Positions 29,765 to 36,506 of a stretch of DNA of 64,000 nt are shown here, piece by piece (position 1 is the stretch's first letter; every line of letters starts with the position of its first letter). The notes beneath the pieces were generated by a model. It had not been told where the DNA came from. It worked only from the letters and a program-made list of their open reading frames with translations, and ran no database searches. Origin of the DNA: Halogranum rubrum (GTDB taxonomy: Archaea > Halobacteriota > Halobacteria > Halobacteriales > Haloferacaceae); contig NZ_FOTC01000001.1 in assembly GCF_900114455.1 (NCBI RefSeq), positions 645,058 to 709,057 on the forward strand, read 5' to 3'. The position numbers and the translations under genes were made by a program.

Positions 29765-30238
29765 TCAGCGGTACAGGCCGAGGAACGTCTGGAACTGTTC
29801 GTCGTCGAGTGTGAACGCGACTTCGACGCTATTCTCTTTCGCGTTGTACCGTACCTCGTCGAGGTCGATGGTCTGTCGGACCGTCTGGACTGCGTCTGCG
29901 AACTCGTCGCCGGACCCGGACTCCGTAGTCACTCCCTCTTCGTCGACACGGACGGTGATACTGTCCATCGTCGTCCGGTACGCGCCCTTCGTCACGATTC
30001 CTGCCTCGAACTGCGTACACTTCTCGACGAGGCCGAGATCGTGGAGTTGTCGAAGTCGGCGGTAGACTGTCGCCTCGGAGACGTCGCACTGGGCAGCAAA
30101 CTCTTCGACAGTGACGACACCCTGCTTGCCGAGTTGGAGTATCTCGCGGGCGACGGCGTCGCCGAGGATGTCGAGGACCGCTGCCGGGTCGGCGAACGTG
30201 GATTCGTCGGAGTGAGTTTGGTCGGCAGTCATTGACAT
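29765..30238 (-). CDS. ArsR-like winged-helix transcription regulator
   Basis: 157 aa from ATG 30238 (an in-frame ATG follows at 30232). Residues 20-90 form a winged helix: ILGDAVAREILQLGKQGVVTV, then CDVSEATVYRRLRQLHDLG as the recognition helix. A C-terminal ligand or dimer domain follows. It probably regulates nearby genes, including the downstream small gene. Confidence 0.82.
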   Translation of the reverse strand: MSMTADQTHSDESTFADPAAVLDILGDAVAREILQLGKQGVVTVEEFAAQCDVSEATVYRRLRQLHDLGLVEKCTQFEAGIVTKGAYRTTMDSITVRVDEEGVTTESGSGDEFADAVQTVRQTIDLDEVRYNAKENSVEVAFTLDDEQFQTFLGLYR

Positions 30239-30412
30239 AGATCCTGATAGTCTGTATAGTGGCTTAGTCAATCACACCCTTCCGCCGATTCAATGCATAG
30301 TTAAGACTAGGTTTTCTCTCTGCCTCGACCACCGAACTAATCAACAGCGTGGGAAGTTCCGATAAATTGAGGGTTGAGACTGTCTACCGTAGCGCTCTCT
30401 CTCGGTTTTGGA

Positions 30413-32230
30413 TTACTCCACCGTCACACATTTCGCGAGGTTTCGCGGCTTGTCGATGGACCGTCCGAGCTGATTTGCAGCGTGGTAGGCGACCAACTGA
30501 AGCTGAACGTTGGCTGCAACACCTGCCAAATCAGGGTGTGTCTCTGGCACGGTCAACACGTGGTCTGCGAGGTCGACGATGTCCCCGTCGGTGTGGCTGG
30601 TGATGGCGATGACGGGTGCCCCACGCGCCTGTACCTCTTTGGCGTTGTTGAGCGTCATCTCGTCGTCGCGGCCGGTGAAGATGACGAACACCGGAGTGTG
30701 CTCGGTGACGAGTGCGAGTGGACCGTGTTTGAGTTCCGAGGCGGCGAACCCTTCGGCGTGTTCGTAGGAGATTTCCTTGAACTTCAGCGCACCTTCGAGC
30801 GCCACCGAGTGGGCGACGCCGCGGCCGATGAAGAAGTACGCCTCGCTACCGGCGTACGCCTGTGCGACTTCCAGCGCCGTCGAGGTGTCGAGCACCGCTT
30901 GGATGTCACCGGGGAGTCGCGAGATGGATTCGAGCAGGTCTCGGCTCTCTGCACTCGGGGTTCCGGTTACGTCCGCGACGACCCGTTCGCACAGCAACAT
31001 CAGGGCCGTCACCTGCGAGGAGAACGTCTTCGTCGCAGCGACGCCGATTTCGGGACCGGCACGGATGAGCAGGCTGTCGTCACATTCGCGGGTGAGCGAC
31101 GACGCGACGACGTTGGTCACCGCGAGTGTTCGCGCACCGGCACTCCGTGCCCGACGGATGGCGTCGAGTGTGTCTGCGGTCTCACCACTCTGTGAGACGG
31201 CGACGACGAGCGTCGAATCCGTGACCGGTGGGCGCATGAGACTGTACTCGCCCGCCATGAACGCGTAGGCAGGAACACCTCGCGCGGCGAGGAGCGACGC
31301 CGCGTACATCGCGGCGTGGTACGACGTCCCCATCGCGACGAGATGTACCTGCGTGACGCCTGCGAAGAGGTCTTCGTCGAACTCTTCGAAGTCGACCGCT
31401 CCTGTGAGCGTGTTCACGCGTCCCTGCGTCGTGCGTCGGAGCGACTCGGGTTGCTCGTGAATCTCCTTGTGCATGTAGTGGTCGTAGCCCGACTTTCCGG
31501 CCGTCTCGGGGTCCCAATCGATGGTCTCGAGCGGTCGGTCCACCGCCGTGCCGTCGGCGTCCGTCAGTTCGAAGCCGTCGGTCGTGATGCGGATGAAGTC
31601 ACCGTCGTGGAGGTAGCGAACGCGGTTCGTGTACTCGACGAACGCCGGGACGTCGCTGGCGACGTACCACTCGCCGTCACCCTCACCGAACACCAGTGGC
31701 GACCCCATGCGCGTCGCGTAGATGGCGTGTTCGTCGTCGAAGATGGCCGCGATGGCGTACGTACCGTCGAGCAGGTCGACCGCTGCACGGAACGCCTCGT
31801 CGTTCGAGGCCCCGTTTTCGAGTTCTTCCTCGATGAGATGCGGGATGACCTCCGTGTCCGTGTCGCTGGCGAAGTGGTGGCCGCGACGCTGGAGATGCGA
31901 CTTCAGTGCGGAGTAGTTGTCGATGATACCGTTGTGGACGACGGCGACGCTGCCGCGTTCGTCCATGTGCGGGTGGGCGTTGGCATCCGTCGGCGGGCCG
32001 TGGGTACTCCAACGGGTGTGACCGATACCGACGGTTCCCTGTAGGTTCCCTTTCTCGACCTGTTCACAGAGGCGGTCGACTTCGCCCGCGCGCTTGACTA
32101 GGCCGATGCCGTGGCCGTTCTGCAGTGCGATACCGGCCGAGTCGTAGCCACGGTACTCCAGTCGTTTCAGTCCGGTGAGGATGGGTTCGAGACTACCCTC
32201 TTCACGGAGACAGGCGGTGATGCCACACAT
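30413..32230 (-). CDS. glmS: Glutamine:fructose-6-phosphate aminotransferase (GlmS)
   Basis: 605 aa. The N-terminal glutaminase starts MCGITACL (Cys1 becomes the nucleophile after Met removal) with HTRWSTHG; then two SIS domains (SQSGETADTLDAI, THTPVFVIFTGRDDE) and ends KCVTVE, as the family does. It makes glucosamine-6-phosphate from Fru-6-P and Gln. The stop of the upstream glmU-like gene shares one base with this start (TAATG), so translation is coupled. Two codons upstream of this ATG another ATG would leave Cys at position 3, not functional. Confidence 0.97.
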   Translation of the reverse strand: MCGITACLREEGSLEPILTGLKRLEYRGYDSAGIALQNGHGIGLVKRAGEVDRLCEQVEKGNLQGTVGIGHTRWSTHGPPTDANAHPHMDERGSVAVVHNGIIDNYSALKSHLQRRGHHFASDTDTEVIPHLIEEELENGASNDEAFRAAVDLLDGTYAIAAIFDDEHAIYATRMGSPLVFGEGDGEWYVASDVPAFVEYTNRVRYLHDGDFIRITTDGFELTDADGTAVDRPLETIDWDPETAGKSGYDHYMHKEIHEQPESLRRTTQGRVNTLTGAVDFEEFDEDLFAGVTQVHLVAMGTSYHAAMYAASLLAARGVPAYAFMAGEYSLMRPPVTDSTLVVAVSQSGETADTLDAIRRARSAGARTLAVTNVVASSLTRECDDSLLIRAGPEIGVAATKTFSSQVTALMLLCERVVADVTGTPSAESRDLLESISRLPGDIQAVLDTSTALEVAQAYAGSEAYFFIGRGVAHSVALEGALKFKEISYEHAEGFAASELKHGPLALVTEHTPVFVIFTGRDDEMTLNNAKEVQARGAPVIAITSHTDGDIVDLADHVLTVPETHPDLAGVAANVQLQLVAYHAANQLGRSIDKPRNLAKCVTVE

Positions 32231-33396
32231 TAGCACATCACCCCCATCCCGTCGGCGACGGTCCCACTGACCACGACACCTGCGCCGACACGGGCGTGCG
32301 TGCCGACGCTACTCCCTGGGAGGAGCGTTGCGTTCGGGCCGACGACGGACCGGTCGCCGACGACACTGCCGACGTGACGGTCAGCGAACAGTTTTCCACC
32401 GAGCGTCACGTCGGCCCGTCCACCAGGTGAGACGGTTCCAGCCCCGACTTCACAGCCGGTACCAACGATGCTGTCACAGAGGTGTACACTGCCGTCGACG
32501 TGGGTGTCGCTGAAGACGATAGAGTGGTCGATGACCGTTCCCGGCCCGACGTGAACGTTCGCCTGTAGACAGCTTCCGCCGCGGATGACGACACCGGCGT
32601 CGATTTCACACCCGGGGCCGACGATAGCTGGTCCCTCGATGACGACGGAGTTGTGGACGTGTGCGGACGTGGCGACGACGACGTCGGCCTCACGCGTGAG
32701 TATCGTCTCCGTCACCGAGAGCAAGCGCCACGGGGTCGCGGGGTCGAGCCAGCCACCGTTGACGAGCACCGAGGTGACGGGTCCGTCGAGGTGAGCGATG
32801 GCGTCGGTCAGATGTAGTTCTCCGTTTCGGGTATCCGTCCTGTCGAGCGACTCGAATATCGACGTCGAGAAGGCGTAGACGCCCGCGTTGACGAGATAGC
32901 CCTTCGTTTCGACTGGGTGTTCGTCGATGTCGGCGATGACGCCGTCGTCACAGACGACGACACCGTACTCTTCGGGTGTGTCAGAGTGCGCGACGGCGAC
33001 TGTCGCCGCCGGCGTGGTCGCCGCGTAGCGTTCGAGCGTGCGCTCGACGATGTCGGCGTCGACGATGGTGTCACCGTTGAGTACGAGGAAGTCGTCGTCG
33101 ACGTGGCCTTCGGCTTGCTGGAGAGCATGGCCGCTTCCGAGTTGAATCGGCTGGCGGACGTACGTGAGTTCCATCTCGCGGTACGCGTCGCCGAGTCGTG
33201 TCTGGATGCGGTCGCTTGCGTGGCCGACGACGACGACGACACGTTCGATTCCGTTCTCGGCGAGAGCATCGAGGACGTACTCGATGATCGGTCGGTTCGC
33301 GACGGGGAGCATCGGCTTCGGCTGATACGTCGTCAGCGGACGCAGATTTCGGCCTTCTCCGCCGGCGAGAACGACAGCCGAGGTAATTCCGGTCAT
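32230..33396 (-). CDS. glmU: GlmU-like sugar nucleotidyltransferase (operon copy)
   Basis: 388 aa. Nucleotidyltransferase domain (VVLAGGEGRNLRPLTTYQPK, NGDTIVDADIVE) and C-terminal hexapeptide left-handed helix (VHVGPGTVIDHSIVFSDTHV). It is the first gene of the glmU-glmS operon and would make UDP-GlcNAc or a related UDP-sugar. The ordinary GTR in the P-loop-like motif is GRN here, so the sugar phosphate may differ from the copy at 26400. It is preceded by a good Shine-Dalgarno GGAGG six bases from the ATG, unusual for haloarchaea. Confidence 0.88.
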   Translation of the reverse strand: MTGITSAVVLAGGEGRNLRPLTTYQPKPMLPVANRPIIEYVLDALAENGIERVVVVVGHASDRIQTRLGDAYREMELTYVRQPIQLGSGHALQQAEGHVDDDFLVLNGDTIVDADIVERTLERYAATTPAATVAVAHSDTPEEYGVVVCDDGVIADIDEHPVETKGYLVNAGVYAFSTSIFESLDRTDTRNGELHLTDAIAHLDGPVTSVLVNGGWLDPATPWRLLSVTETILTREADVVVATSAHVHNSVVIEGPAIVGPGCEIDAGVVIRGGSCLQANVHVGPGTVIDHSIVFSDTHVDGSVHLCDSIVGTGCEVGAGTVSPGGRADVTLGGKLFADRHVGSVVGDRSVVGPNATLLPGSSVGTHARVGAGVVVSGTVADGMGVMC

Positions 33397-33397
33397 T

Positions 33398-33416
33398 CCT
33401 GTCCTCCCACGACAGG
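33398..33416 (-). promoter_or_regulatory. 5' leader hairpin containing the glmU Shine-Dalgarno
   Basis: On the minus strand a perfect 6-bp stem CCTGTC/GACAGG encloses a loop GTGGGAG immediately before the ATG at 33396. The loop and first stem bases contain GGGAGG, the ribosome site. Formation of the stem would partly hide it, so translation of glmU and, by coupling, glmS could be controlled here. Only the sequence supports this. Confidence 0.5.
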
Positions 33417-33469
33417 TAAACCACGGGTTCCTACAGTCATAGCGAGGAGAGGGGGTGGTACCCGCTTTG

Positions 33470-33475
33470 TTATAA
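33470..33475 (-). promoter_or_regulatory. Putative box A (TTATAA) of the glmU-glmS operon
   Basis: The only TATA-like site in the 90 bases before the gene. A start 24-27 bases downstream would give a leader of about 50 bases, consistent with the leader hairpin at 33398-33416. Confidence 0.5.
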
Positions 33476-33884
33476 GGTGGCTGAACACTCTCGTGTCAAC
33501 GTTAGCTGGTCACTCACCTTTGAGCGTCTCTGTGGCAGGGGCGGCCTGTTCTCCCGTCTGTCCCGCCTACTAACTGTACCCTCGGGTAACGCGACCCTAC
33601 TGCGGTACGCCTCCGGAACTGCTCTCGTGTCATCCGCCTTCGAAACAATCTCTCGTCGACTCTCCGCTGCCGAGACAGCGGACGAACAGCACCGAAAGTC
33701 GGCGTCGAGCGGAGTGCGGTTCCGGAGCGGTGTCGTCGTCACTCTCGGATGTCGACGGCGTTCGTGGTGAGTGCGTGGTCGAGTTGGCTTTGCCGACAGC
33801 TCCTGAGTGGGTGACGACGGTTGCACCGGCCGTAACTCTGGAAGTCGGGTGTCTAAAATAGCGGGGGCGTGTGCGACAGGCTGG
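33476..33884. other. Intergenic region with no clear gene
   Basis: About 400 bases between the glmU promoter and the DUF7344 gene end. Short frames exist in both strands but have no conserved features. I see nothing else, apart from ordinary GC-rich sequence. Confidence 0.4.
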
Positions 33885-34436
33885 TCAGATTTCGAGTGCT
33901 TCGCTGGCGGCGAACACGAGGAGGCTGATAGTGCTCACGATTGCCCACCCGGCGGCGGGGAGCGCAGAGAGGACGGGGGCACCTGCGAGTCCAGCGGCGA
34001 CGAAGAGCGCGACGACCGCTGCAGCACCCATGCGGAACTCGCTGTTCGAGTCGTCGACACTGGGTTCGTCGTTGAGATACGAGTCCAGCAGCTTCGCGGC
34101 CGGACGGAGTGCGATAGTACCTCGGTCTTTGTCGAAGTCGATGACTCCGAAGCTCGCCATCTTCGGGAGATGGCACTGATAGAGACCGATGTACACCCGC
34201 TTCCGCTGACTCGAGGAGAGTGCCTTGATGTCGATTCCGTTCTCCTTGGCTGCGATGTACTCGGACATGTCGCTGAGCTTCACCGTTCCCTCGTTTTCTT
34301 TGAGGAAGTGAAGCGCGTCGCGACGCCGCTGATTCTTCAATATCTCGAAGAGTTCGTCCTTCGAGAGTGTCGGTTCGGTCGGTTGCGTCTCGGCGCTCTC
34401 GCTATCCGTTTCTGCTTGTATACTTTGAAGTTCCAT
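33885..34436 (-). CDS. DUF7344 winged-helix protein with membrane tail
   Basis: 183 aa from ATG 34436. Winged helix: KDELFEILKNQRRRDALHFL, then QRKRVYIGLYQCHLPKMAS. Two hydrophobic helices at the end (AAAVVALFVAAGLAGAPVL and the next). A Glu-rich N-terminal stretch (residues 5-25) precedes the domain. Likely a membrane-bound or membrane-sensing DNA regulator. Confidence 0.8.
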   Translation of the reverse strand: MELQSIQAETDSESAETQPTEPTLSKDELFEILKNQRRRDALHFLKENEGTVKLSDMSEYIAAKENGIDIKALSSSQRKRVYIGLYQCHLPKMASFGVIDFDKDRGTIALRPAAKLLDSYLNDEPSVDDSNSEFRMGAAAVVALFVAAGLAGAPVLSALPAAGWAIVSTISLLVFAASEALEI

Positions 34437-34858
34437 TTCCCTTCCCCTTGGCTGATGGCCGCAACGCTGCCGCATTCAGGGCGCCCCCGCCGTCGCCGGC
34501 GAGAGAGCGAATAAACCTCACATTTTCGTGGAGGTTCTGCGTGTTCGGGCGTGAACCCGGTTGTTCCCCAACAGCTACTACCATTGTTCGGCATACATAA
34601 TTAAATCGTTGACTATTAACTGCACGTGTTGATTATCCTGAGAGGTTATTCTTCAAATTTTGAGTCATTTCAGTCAGAATTTAAGATTGACTGTTGTTCG
34701 TGAACACCCCGGCTACGGCCGTAGATACGGGTCTATCGGCGTTTCTATGGGGACTGCACCACTTGTGCCATTAGAAGAGCGTATGTTCAAAAAGAACCTC
34801 TGTGTGAGTCTCCCATTCTGGCAGAATTACGTGGCTAACTCTTAAGAGAATCTAGAAA
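34437..34858. other. AT-rich intergenic region upstream of the DUF7344 gene
   Basis: 422 bases. 34580-34690 is clearly AT-rich (ATTAAAT, TTGACTATTAA), which should be the promoter area of the minus-strand gene, and the remainder has no gene. GGCTAACTCTT occurs at 34833-34843 and again at 34865-34875 inside the end of the NUDIX gene. Confidence 0.45.
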
Positions 34859-35296
34859 TCATGCGGCTAACTCTTGACAGAGTTGAGAGAGGTAGTCGTC
34901 GAGGGCGAGGGCGAACGGTCGGTTCGTCGGGAGGGCAACCCAAAAGTACTGGAACCGTTGTCCTGTCTCTTCGCCGTCACCTGTCACCACGTGCGTCCAC
35001 TCGTCGCGAGGTTCGGCGACGTCGAAGTGATAGAAATGTCGGACGTACGTCCGTCCTGGTTGGCGTATCCAACGGTCTGTTGCGACTTCTCGAGGTGGGT
35101 CGGTGACGACGAGTCCACTCTCCTCGGCGACTTCGCGACGTACTGCTGCCTGTGGCGACTCGCCGGGTTCGATAGTTCCCTTCGGAATCTGTAACCCGTC
35201 GTGATCCGGCCCCTGGAACACGAGTAGCTCTGTACCCTCGTTGCGCGTGATGTACGCGCAGGCTTTCTGCACACGAGTAGGCTGTCGTCCGAACAT
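34859..35296 (-). CDS. NUDIX hydrolase
   Basis: 145 aa. The Nudix box GTIEPGESPQAAVRREVAEE with SGLV follows the GX5EX7REUXEEXGU pattern. The N-terminus is short and there are no extra domains. It probably cleaves nucleoside diphosphate derivatives such as sugar nucleotides or oxidised NTPs; the closeness to glycan genes is suggestive only. Confidence 0.9.
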   Translation of the reverse strand: MFGRQPTRVQKACAYITRNEGTELLVFQGPDHDGLQIPKGTIEPGESPQAAVRREVAEESGLVVTDPPREVATDRWIRQPGRTYVRHFYHFDVAEPRDEWTHVVTGDGEETGQRFQYFWVALPTNRPFALALDDYLSQLCQELAA

Positions 35297-35391
35297 AGTC
35301 TTCAGTATCGGTGATTCAGTAAAGTTAGCACGTCGCTACCGCGTTCGACGACGGTACGACAGAAGAAGACCCGAAACGTCGGCAGTGAGTG

Positions 35392-35916
35392 TCAGTCGAC
35401 GAACGACAGAAGGCACTGGTTGGCGAGCGTGCGCGTGCGCTGGACGTACTGTGCGACGACGAGTGCCGCGAGCACCAGCGACATGACGAGCAGGAGGCTA
35501 CTTGCACCACCCGAGAACTGTCCGAACGAGAGTGAGACGCCGGCGATAACACCGACCAGCGCGACGGCTGCGTATCCTACGAGCCAGCTGTCGGTCGTGG
35601 CTTCGACACAGTGGTCCTCCAGTGCGTGGCGGTCGAGTGTGAGTTCTCGCTCGTCTTCGTCGTAGTGAACCAGTCCACTATCGGTCAGTGTCGGAAGGTG
35701 TGTCTGGTACAACGAGACGTAGACGCGCTGTCGCTCCTCGTTCGTGACCTCGTCGAGCGTGGTCTCTTCTTCGTTGGCAGCGATCAGTGCGGCCAACTCC
35801 TTCAGGTCGGTCGAGCGGTTCGTCTGATACAGGTGACGAATGATAAATCGGCGACGAGAGTTGCCGAGTATCTGAAAGAGGGTGTCGGTCGAGAGTCCCT
35901 CATCGTCGACCATCAT
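35392..35916 (-). CDS. DUF7344 winged-helix membrane protein
   Basis: 174 aa. Winged helix TDTLFQILGNSRRRFIIRHL and RQRVYVSLYQTHLPTLTDSG, then two hydrophobic helices (WLVGYAAVALVGVIAGVSLS and a second). The third member of its kind in this 11 kb. ATG 35916 or 35913 are both possible. It is a probable sensor/repressor. Confidence 0.8.
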   Translation of the reverse strand: MMVDDEGLSTDTLFQILGNSRRRFIIRHLYQTNRSTDLKELAALIAANEEETTLDEVTNEERQRVYVSLYQTHLPTLTDSGLVHYDEDERELTLDRHALEDHCVEATTDSWLVGYAAVALVGVIAGVSLSFGQFSGGASSLLLVMSLVLAALVVAQYVQRTRTLANQCLLSFVD

Positions 35917-36224
35917 CCGGTGCTGCGCCGTCGACTGGCGCAGGTGCTGTCCGCTTCGTGAGCGGCGAGAGTTTCGGGAAATTCCTCATGTACCATTGAC
36001 TACTCCAACTCAGCGAGGGACTTGGTTATAGTCGGGCTATCGTTCGGTTTGGCACTGGCAACCGTCGCTAGGGCCGTGCAGTCTTTCATTTTCCAAGAAC
36101 TGTCTTCCAGTGTAGTTTCTCTGTTTAATCATCCGTTCTCCAGTGTCGGCGTCGACGCAACCGACAACAGAACGGAGTTCGTGGGTGGCTAACAATATCG
36201 GATGCGGTACTACTCTGGTATCAG
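35917..36224. other. Intergenic region with PadR-gene promoter
   Basis: 308 bases. The box A candidate ACAATATCGG at 36191-36200 is about 28 bases before ATG 36225, fitting a leaderless transcript. Upstream there is an AT-rich block at 36090-36130 and no gene. Confidence 0.5.
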
Positions 36225-36506
36225 ATGAGTCTGTTCGAATTGACCGGCTTCCAGCGGGACCTTCTGTACGTCATCGCGGGAGCAGACAAGCCCTCTGGGC
36301 AGATGGTGAAAGAACGCATCGAGCAAGATATCGGCGAGGTCAAACACGGGAGGCTGTATCCCAACCTCGACACACTCGTGGAGCGTGGCTACGTCAACAA
36401 AGGCCAACACGACCGACGCACGAACTACTACGCAATCTCGGACTCTGGACTGCAAGCGCTACGCGAGCGGCGCTCGTGGGAAAGTCAGTTTCTCGACGGC
36501 GAGTGA
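36225..36506 (+). CDS. PadR-like winged-helix regulator
   Basis: 93 aa. LTGFQRDLLYVIAGADKPSG, then VKHGRLYPNLDTLVERGYVN and RRTNYYAISDSGLQALRER: a PadR winged helix with the family's YPxLxxLxxxG pattern and no C-terminal extension. It is an autonomous regulator lying between the DUF7344 gene and the glycan locus. A perfect hairpin follows the stop at 36550-36568. Confidence 0.88.
   Translation: MSLFELTGFQRDLLYVIAGADKPSGQMVKERIEQDIGEVKHGRLYPNLDTLVERGYVNKGQHDRRTNYYAISDSGLQALRERRSWESQFLDGE

What the first reader, a model, noticed from the sequence alone, without database searches (positions are those of the whole stretch)
33398..33475. glmU-glmS leader with a hairpin over the Shine-Dalgarno
The only TATA-like site (33470-33475) implies a 50-base leader ending in a 6-bp hairpin whose loop contains GGGAGG before the ATG. 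Most haloarchaeal genes are leaderless, and glmS is a classical RNA-regulated gene in bacteria. The downstream glmS starts with TAATG, so one switch would control both.
Basis: partly seen in the sequence, partly recalled or inferred. Interest (0 to 1): 0.5.

Follow-up and report, generated by a model that had tools for sequence, protein, structure and literature searches.

The report
Conserved mini-ORF feeding ribosomes to glmU
What looked like an untranslated leader with a hairpin before an amino-sugar operon is more probably a tiny 15-codon reading frame whose stop overlaps the start of glmU; nearly all close relatives keep this layout while the peptide itself changes freely, which suggests that these salt-loving archaea use it only to bring ribosomes to glmU.

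Summary
Of 41 GlmU orthologs found in 170 family genomes (E<=1e-90), 40 have such an ORF (15-41 codons) ending in an NTGA overlap; 39 of these start 33-35 nt after a TATAAC/CATTAC-like box. Controls: 1 of 22 more distant GlmU homologs, 12 of 231 genes of this genome. The peptide sequence looks unselected (codon positions diverge alike, charge as in shuffles), yet the frame has 0 stops against 24 and 23 in the shifted frames, through at least 10 length changes. The hairpin has no general signal (mean z -0.18; 6 six-bp hairpins of 41 against 5.0 expected), only a weak excess where GGAGG exists. Best reading: a near-leaderless "ribosome-delivery" uORF; ribosomes start at its AUG, terminate, reinitiate on glmU and then glmS. 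TSS, translation and coupling are inferred, not shown. Closest known kind: coupled leaderless small ORFs of mycobacteria; the paper searches made here listed no archaeal counterpart, but two key Haloferax papers could not be read.

The parts
33469..33475 (-). TATA-like box (TTATAAC); TATAAC begins 34 nt before the uORF ATG
   Evidence: box-to-uORF-ATG distance 33-35 nt in 39 of 40 orthologs with the uORF; genome-trained promoter score 4.1 at the uORF ATG against -6.6 at the glmU ATG
33393..33440 (-). 15-codon upstream ORF, MTVGTRGLPVVGGQE, its TGA overlapping the glmU ATG (ATGA)
   Evidence: coupled uORF in 40 of 41 orthologs
33403..33407 (-). GGAGG, Shine-Dalgarno-like, inside the uORF, 11 nt before the glmU ATG
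   Evidence: an SD match of 5 nt or more in 18 of 40 orthologs, none of 4 nt or more in 16 of 40
33398..33416 (-).
32230..33396 (-). glmU-like gene (388 aa: nucleotidyltransferase plus hexapeptide repeats)
   Evidence: best NCBIfam model TIGR03992 at 275.5 bits, below its cut-off of 292.1
30413..32230 (-). glmS, its ATG overlapping the glmU TAA (TAATG)
   Evidence: TIGR01135 at 714.5 bits against a cut-off of 418.05; glmS-type start downstream of glmU in 30 of 30 loci checked

Best explanation
The promoter makes an mRNA that is leaderless or nearly so, and whose first AUG belongs to a 15-codon uORF. Ribosomes start there by the leaderless route usual in haloarchaea, reach the UGA that overlaps the glmU AUG, terminate and reinitiate on glmU; the UAAUG at the end of glmU passes them on to glmS. 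The uORF product has no sequence-dependent job: selection keeps the act of translation (an AUG at the right distance from the promoter, an open frame, the NTGA overlap). The uORF thus delivers ribosomes to the amino-sugar operon and can set how many arrive. Shown here: the conserved architecture, the unconstrained peptide sequence, the preserved frame. Inferred: TSS position, translation of the uORF, reinitiation, any regulation.
For: 40 of 41 orthologs have the coupled uORF, in 8 of 9 genera (one search gives the genera); 39 of the 40 have the uORF ATG 33-35 nt after the box while the box-to-glmU distance runs from 78 to 156 nt over the 41. Background: 1 of 22 distant GlmU homologs, 12 of 231 genes of this genome. 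No internal stop in the uORF frame against 24 and 23 in the shifted frames, which hit 22 and 18 of 40 sequences. At least 10 length changes on the tree. Codon positions 1/2/3 diverge alike in the uORF, unlike glmU (27 of the 40 uORFs, in three ungapped subgroups). The promoter score is higher at the uORF ATG than at the glmU start in 39 of 40. Seven named records show it. In H. volcanii leaderless transcripts prevail (PMC4983044) and 9 of 9 close gene pairs tested were strictly coupled (PMC6728339).
Against: No TSS, Ribo-seq or reporter data for this locus. L009 lacks the NTGA overlap (TAG one base before the ATG, ORF start 59 nt after the box); L008's uORF ATG is 43 nt after its box. The box lies about 5 nt further from the ATG than the TATA peak of this genome, and promoter scores of the 40 are modest (-1.0 to 4.6, median 1.8; random sites reach 3.0 at the 95th percentile). 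In L049 the glmU start scores higher than the uORF ATG. NTGA needs only an A after the start codon (87 of 231 genes here), so the overlap alone is weak evidence. That the length changes keep the frame follows partly from how the uORF is recognised. The orthologs are related, so raw counts overstate independence.
Confidence: 0.82

Rival explanations
1. One reading: a folded leader whose hairpin hides the SD of glmU and works as a switch, perhaps for an amino sugar.
For: Perfect 6-bp hairpin around the SD in the window (2% of shuffles with GGAGG fixed) and in the other species of the genus that has the gene (L003, 2%; fold z -2.91); among 15 orthologs with GGAGG, 10 have it in a hairpin loop against 3.2 expected.
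Against: No fold signal over 41 orthologs (mean z -0.18; 3 of 41 below -1.5); 6 six-bp hairpins against 5.0 expected; 16 of 40 lack an SD match of 4 nt or more; the 15 orthologs include near-identical sequences and their stems differ between lineages; nothing in Rfam at a meaningful score.
Confidence: 0.07
2. A regulatory leader peptide: translation of particular codons or residues of the uORF stalls or frees the ribosome (attenuation).
For: Short ORF directly before a biosynthetic operon; cysteine-rich leaderless ORFs of this type were proposed in mycobacteria (PMC4633059 passages).
Against: Codon positions 1, 2 and 3 diverge alike and the length runs from 15 to 41 codons; Lys+Arg and Asp+Glu contents are those of shuffles.
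Confidence: 0.04
3. The uORF encodes a functional microprotein.
For: Conserved start, frame and stop.
Against: Amino-acid sequence unconstrained in all three subgroups tested; composition as in shuffles.
Confidence: 0.02
4. The box is a regulator site or initiator rather than the TATA box, so transcription starts further upstream and the uORF sits within a true 5'-UTR; coupling to glmU may still hold.
For: A TAAC element lies 30-32 nt upstream of the box in 19 of 41 orthologs; an ATAAC[AC]A box also precedes the neighbouring DUF7344 gene in the 18 loci with a hit that were examined.
Against: The element has no counterpart in 21 of 41 orthologs; the constant 33-35 nt from box to uORF ATG in 39 of 40 fits a promoter.
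Confidence: 0.1

Closest known systems
Coupled leaderless small ORFs of mycobacteria (Shell et al. 2015, PMC4633059; passages read)
   Same: Small ORF at or near the 5' end of the mRNA; RTGA overlap with the next gene; linkage conserved while the peptide sequence is not; ribosome delivery proposed.
   Different: Archaeal host and promoter; here the comparison spans 41 orthologs and 9 genera of one gene; there TSS mapping and ribosome profiling exist, here neither.
Termination-reinitiation at overlapping gene pairs in Haloferax volcanii (Huber et al. 2019, PMC6728339; abstract and two sections read)
   Same: ATGA overlap, haloarchaeal host, SD-like motif helpful in some cases and dispensable in others.
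   Different: The pairs described in the sections read are two ordinary genes; here the upstream partner is a 15-41 codon ORF without peptide conservation.
uORFs in long 5'-UTRs of H. volcanii (Babski et al. 2016, PMC4983044; section read)
   Same: ORFs of 15-31 aa before larger genes in a haloarchaeon.
   Different: Those lie in leaders of 150-250 nt and were credited with low isoelectric points typical of real proteins; glmU is not in that table, and coupling or conservation of the layout is not discussed in that section.
glmS ribozyme/riboswitch and other glmS leader RNAs of bacteria (recalled)
   Same: Controls glmS from its mRNA.
   Different: No such Rfam match here, no conserved fold.

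Membership tests
Coupled leaderless small ORF (mycobacterial type) | Stop of the small ORF overlaps the next start as RTGA | tested here: met
   ATGA or GTGA in 40 of 41 orthologs
Coupled leaderless small ORF (mycobacterial type) | Linkage conserved, peptide sequence not | tested here: met
Coupled leaderless small ORF (mycobacterial type) | mRNA begins at the start codon of the small ORF | tested here: inconclusive
   Constant box-to-ATG distance supports it; the box is about 5 nt further upstream than the genome's TATA peak and scores are modest; no TSS data
Coupled leaderless small ORF (mycobacterial type) | Ribosomes occupy the small ORF | not testable with these tools
   No ribosome profiling data at hand; Gelsinger 2020 and Hadjeras 2023 not held
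Termination-reinitiation gene pair (haloarchaeal) | Overlapping stop and start codons | tested here: met
Termination-reinitiation gene pair (haloarchaeal) | A premature stop in the upstream ORF abolishes translation of the downstream gene | not testable with these tools
   needs reporter fusions
Leader-peptide attenuator | Conserved regulatory codons or residues | tested here: not met
   Positions 1/2/3 diverge alike in three subgroups (27 of 40 uORFs); lengths 15-41 codons
Structured leader RNA (riboswitch or SD-masking hairpin) | Conserved fold more stable than shuffles | tested here: not met
   mean z -0.18 over 41; 6 hairpins against 5.0 expected; lineage-restricted excess 10 of 15 against 3.2
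glmS ribozyme | Match to a curated RNA family | tested here: not met
   window 33000-34000, both strands, E-value up to 10

The most novel reading that the evidence does not exclude
Haloarchaea use near-leaderless uORFs without peptide function as adjustable valves: because the downstream gene is read only by reinitiation, amino-sugar synthesis (glmU-glmS) is tied to the state of termination, recycling and leaderless initiation, giving a translational control layer in organisms with few structured leaders. In the window's genus a neighbouring DUF7344 gene shows the same layout (2 of 2 species examined), so the design may recur.
Probability: 0.2. Interest if true: 0.72.

Novelty: new variant of a known kind. 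Interest (0 to 1): 0.5.

Why it matters
Haloarchaea mostly make leaderless mRNAs and seem to lack much of the leader-based control of bacteria. A uORF kept over several genera for the act of translation rather than for its peptide would give them a place for translational control. It would also offer one reason why a Shine-Dalgarno motif can stand before the first annotated gene of an operon in organisms where that motif does little for fresh initiation, and it would mean that a gene such as glmU, which looks leadered, is really a second cistron. It can be tested directly in Haloferax.

Tried and rejected
Rfam search of 33000-34000 gave one sub-threshold miRNA hit. Hairpin conservation was tested three ways and rejected as a general feature, with the weak positive kept. 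Genome-wide class: a promoter-backed scan of 219 genes with free upstream DNA in 400 kb gave 1, 3 and 6 candidates at falling thresholds, and of 37 genes in the window 1, 2 and 2; enrichment at the +1 stop offset is partly trivial, because any start codon followed by A makes TGA. My first two scans missed glmU itself because promoter scores of starts inside the gene were counted as its own; mended. Two candidates were followed: the ortholog of C6:257327-258025 in G001 shows no such uORF; C6:396159-396704 is a piece of a 1327-aa frame. The rest were not followed. Pattern ATAACAA-N26-28-ATG: 5 hits in the genome against 5 for the reversed control; besides glmU, two hits start frames of 322 and 501 or more codons, one a 7-codon ORF, and one a 17-codon ORF ending GTGA before a frame of only 20 codons. 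Peptide attenuator and microprotein: rejected. Paper searches: (8 of 10 allowed); none of the listings showed a conserved leaderless coupled uORF in archaea. PMC10666635, PMC12482152, PMC11456600 and PMC7531240 were searched for terms only. Gelsinger 2020 and Hadjeras 2023 are not held and were not read.

Full report
Observation. The loop is GTGGGAG; the last G of GGGAGG lies in the stem. A 6-bp hairpin arises in 3.2% of shuffles of this stretch, and the fold around the start is ordinary (z -0.49).

What was missed. Between promoter and glmU lies an open reading frame: ATG at 33440, 15 codons, and a TGA at 33395-33393 that overlaps the glmU ATG as ATGA. The TATAAC box starts 34 nt before that ATG. 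A TSS about 27 nt after the box centre would lie only a few nt before the uORF ATG, so the mRNA would be leaderless or nearly so for the uORF.

Conservation. A search of 170 genomes of the family gave 41 genomes, in 9 of 28 genera, with a GlmU ortholog at E<=1e-90; they were chosen without regard to upstream DNA. 40 of 41 carry an ATG-started uORF of 15-41 codons whose stop forms an NTGA overlap with the glmU start. The exception, L009, has a 21-codon ORF ending in TAG one base before the ATG and starting 59 nt after the box. In 39 of the 40 the uORF ATG is 33-35 nt after a TATAAC/CATAAC/CATTAC-like box (one, L008, at 43), while the box-to-glmU distance runs from 78 to 156 nt over the 41. Where several in-frame ATGs exist, the one nearest 34 nt from the box was taken. 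Seven named plasmid records (Haloferax lucentense, H. mediterranei, H. gibbonsii, H. larsenii, H. alexandrinus, Salinigranum marinum, Halobellus limi), 7 of the 8 best hits, all have it; no small gene is listed there in the PLSDB tables, which are incomplete. Halogeometricum limi has it too (L005/L032).

Controls. Of 22 more distant GlmU homologs, 1 has an NTGA-coupled ORF of 10-45 codons; of 231 genes with free upstream DNA in 400 kb of this genome, 12 do. NTGA itself is cheap: 87 of those 231 starts are followed by A. In the 40 uORFs there are 0 internal in-frame stops in 1032 codons; the two shifted frames of the same DNA have 24 and 23 in 992 codons each, in 22 and 18 of 40 sequences. On the tree at least 10 changes of uORF length are needed. 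Each keeps the frame; this is partly built into how the uORF is recognised, but only one of 41 orthologs fails the test.

The peptide is not what is kept. In three ungapped subgroups (13, 7 and 7 sequences, 27 of the 40) codon positions 1, 2 and 3 differ at 0.38/0.40/0.49, 0.16/0.20/0.17 and 0.27/0.33/0.26, against 0.07/0.04/0.38, 0.01/0.01/0.10 and 0.06/0.03/0.35 in 60 codons of glmU. Lys plus Arg is 20.4% against 20.0 +- 1.2% in dinucleotide shuffles, and Asp plus Glu 8.2% against 7.3 +- 0.7%. Start, frame and stop overlap are conserved and the amino acids are free. This argues against a microprotein and against a stalling leader peptide.

Hairpin and SD. Over 41 orthologs the mean folding z is -0.18, with 3 of 41 below -1.5, and 6 have a 6-bp hairpin in the last 50 nt against 5.0 expected. 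SD matches of 5 nt or more occur in 18 of 40; 16 of 40 have none of 4 nt or more. Among the 15 with GGAGG 8-14 nt before the start, 10 have it in a hairpin loop against 3.2 expected, with 6-bp stems in both species of the window's genus that have the gene; these sequences are partly near-identical. A hairpin that hides the SD until a ribosome finishing the uORF opens it is therefore possible in some lineages as an addition.

Mechanism. In H. volcanii the SD of the sod 5'-UTR does not drive initiation (PMC3986360 abstract), although a review passage cites a gas-vesicle gene whose SD did enhance translation there (PMC7531240). 72% of its protein-coding transcripts are leaderless (PMC4983044 passages), and 9 of 9 overlapping or closely spaced pairs tested were strictly coupled, with the SD important to very different degrees (PMC6728339 sections). 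Together: leaderless start on the uORF, termination at UGA, reinitiation on glmU, and again on glmS at UAAUG. glmS follows glmU in 30 of 30 loci checked; the 11 other loci of the 41 were not checked because they were cut short. Each step is inferred from these papers and from architecture; none was shown at this locus. Why the uORF exists, when 21 of 22 distant GlmU homologs do without one, the sequence cannot decide: it may limit or tune supply, or have rescued glmU after its promoter moved upstream.

Weak points. The box is about 5 nt further from the ATG than the TATA peak of this genome (-29 to -26, 195 genes). A promoter matrix trained on this genome gives 4.1 for the window uORF ATG and -6.6 for glmU; over the 40 it gives -1.0 to 4.6 (median 1.8), higher than at the glmU start in 39 of 40, while random sites reach 3.0 at the 95th percentile. 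Relatedness inflates raw counts. The glmU name rests on TIGR03992 at 275.5 bits, below its cut-off of 292.1; glmS is firm (TIGR01135, 714.5 bits).

Is it a class? A promoter-backed scan found few other candidates in 400 kb; the one properly followed up is not conserved in G001. One neighbour is of interest: the DUF7344 gene at 35392-35916 has a 27-codon uORF 34 nt after a TATAAC box, ending ATGA at its start, and G002 has a 21-codon uORF in the same place with the same 34 nt; the other 16 loci examined have a similar box but no such ATG uORF.

Known or new. The closest kind is the mycobacterial coupled leaderless small ORF, for which conserved linkage with a diverged peptide and ribosome delivery were already proposed (PMC4633059 passages; review PMC12548453 passages). 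Termination-reinitiation is known in Haloferax, and 16 uORFs in long leaders were listed there, without glmU. Searches listed no conserved, coupled, near-leaderless uORF in archaea, but two relevant Haloferax ribosome-profiling papers could not be read. Hence: an archaeal variant of a known kind.

Noticed in passing
window 35913-35996 (-), before the gene 35392-35916: Second coupled uORF: TATAAC box (36030-36025), 34 nt to the ATG of a 27-codon ORF whose TGA overlaps the start of a DUF7344 gene; G002 (L098) has a 21-codon uORF at the same 34 nt. 2 of 18 loci have it; the other 16 have a similar box but no such ATG uORF.
   Followed up: partly
L002-L007, L038-L054 upstream of the glmU box: A TAAC element lies 30-32 nt upstream of the TATA-like box in 19 of 41 orthologs, about three helical turns; perhaps a regulator site.
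   Followed up: partly
L091-L108, upstream of the DUF7344 gene: An ATAAC[AC]A box similar to the glmU box precedes the neighbouring DUF7344 gene in the 18 loci with a hit (one of them at 179 nt beside an assembly gap), with leaders of about 70-115 nt in the rest; a shared regulatory motif of the island is possible.
   Followed up: no
window 29765-36506 and L091-L097: The order DUF7344 - (NUDIX) - DUF7344 - glmU - glmS - HTH gene, with a PadR-annotated gene nearby, is largely kept on Haloferax and Salinigranum plasmids; the PadR-like ORF at 36225-36506 in the window was not tested.
   Followed up: no
G000:C6 and other contigs: This genome holds 9 matches to the GlmU query at E<=0.001, so several nucleotidyltransferase paralogs.
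   Followed up: no
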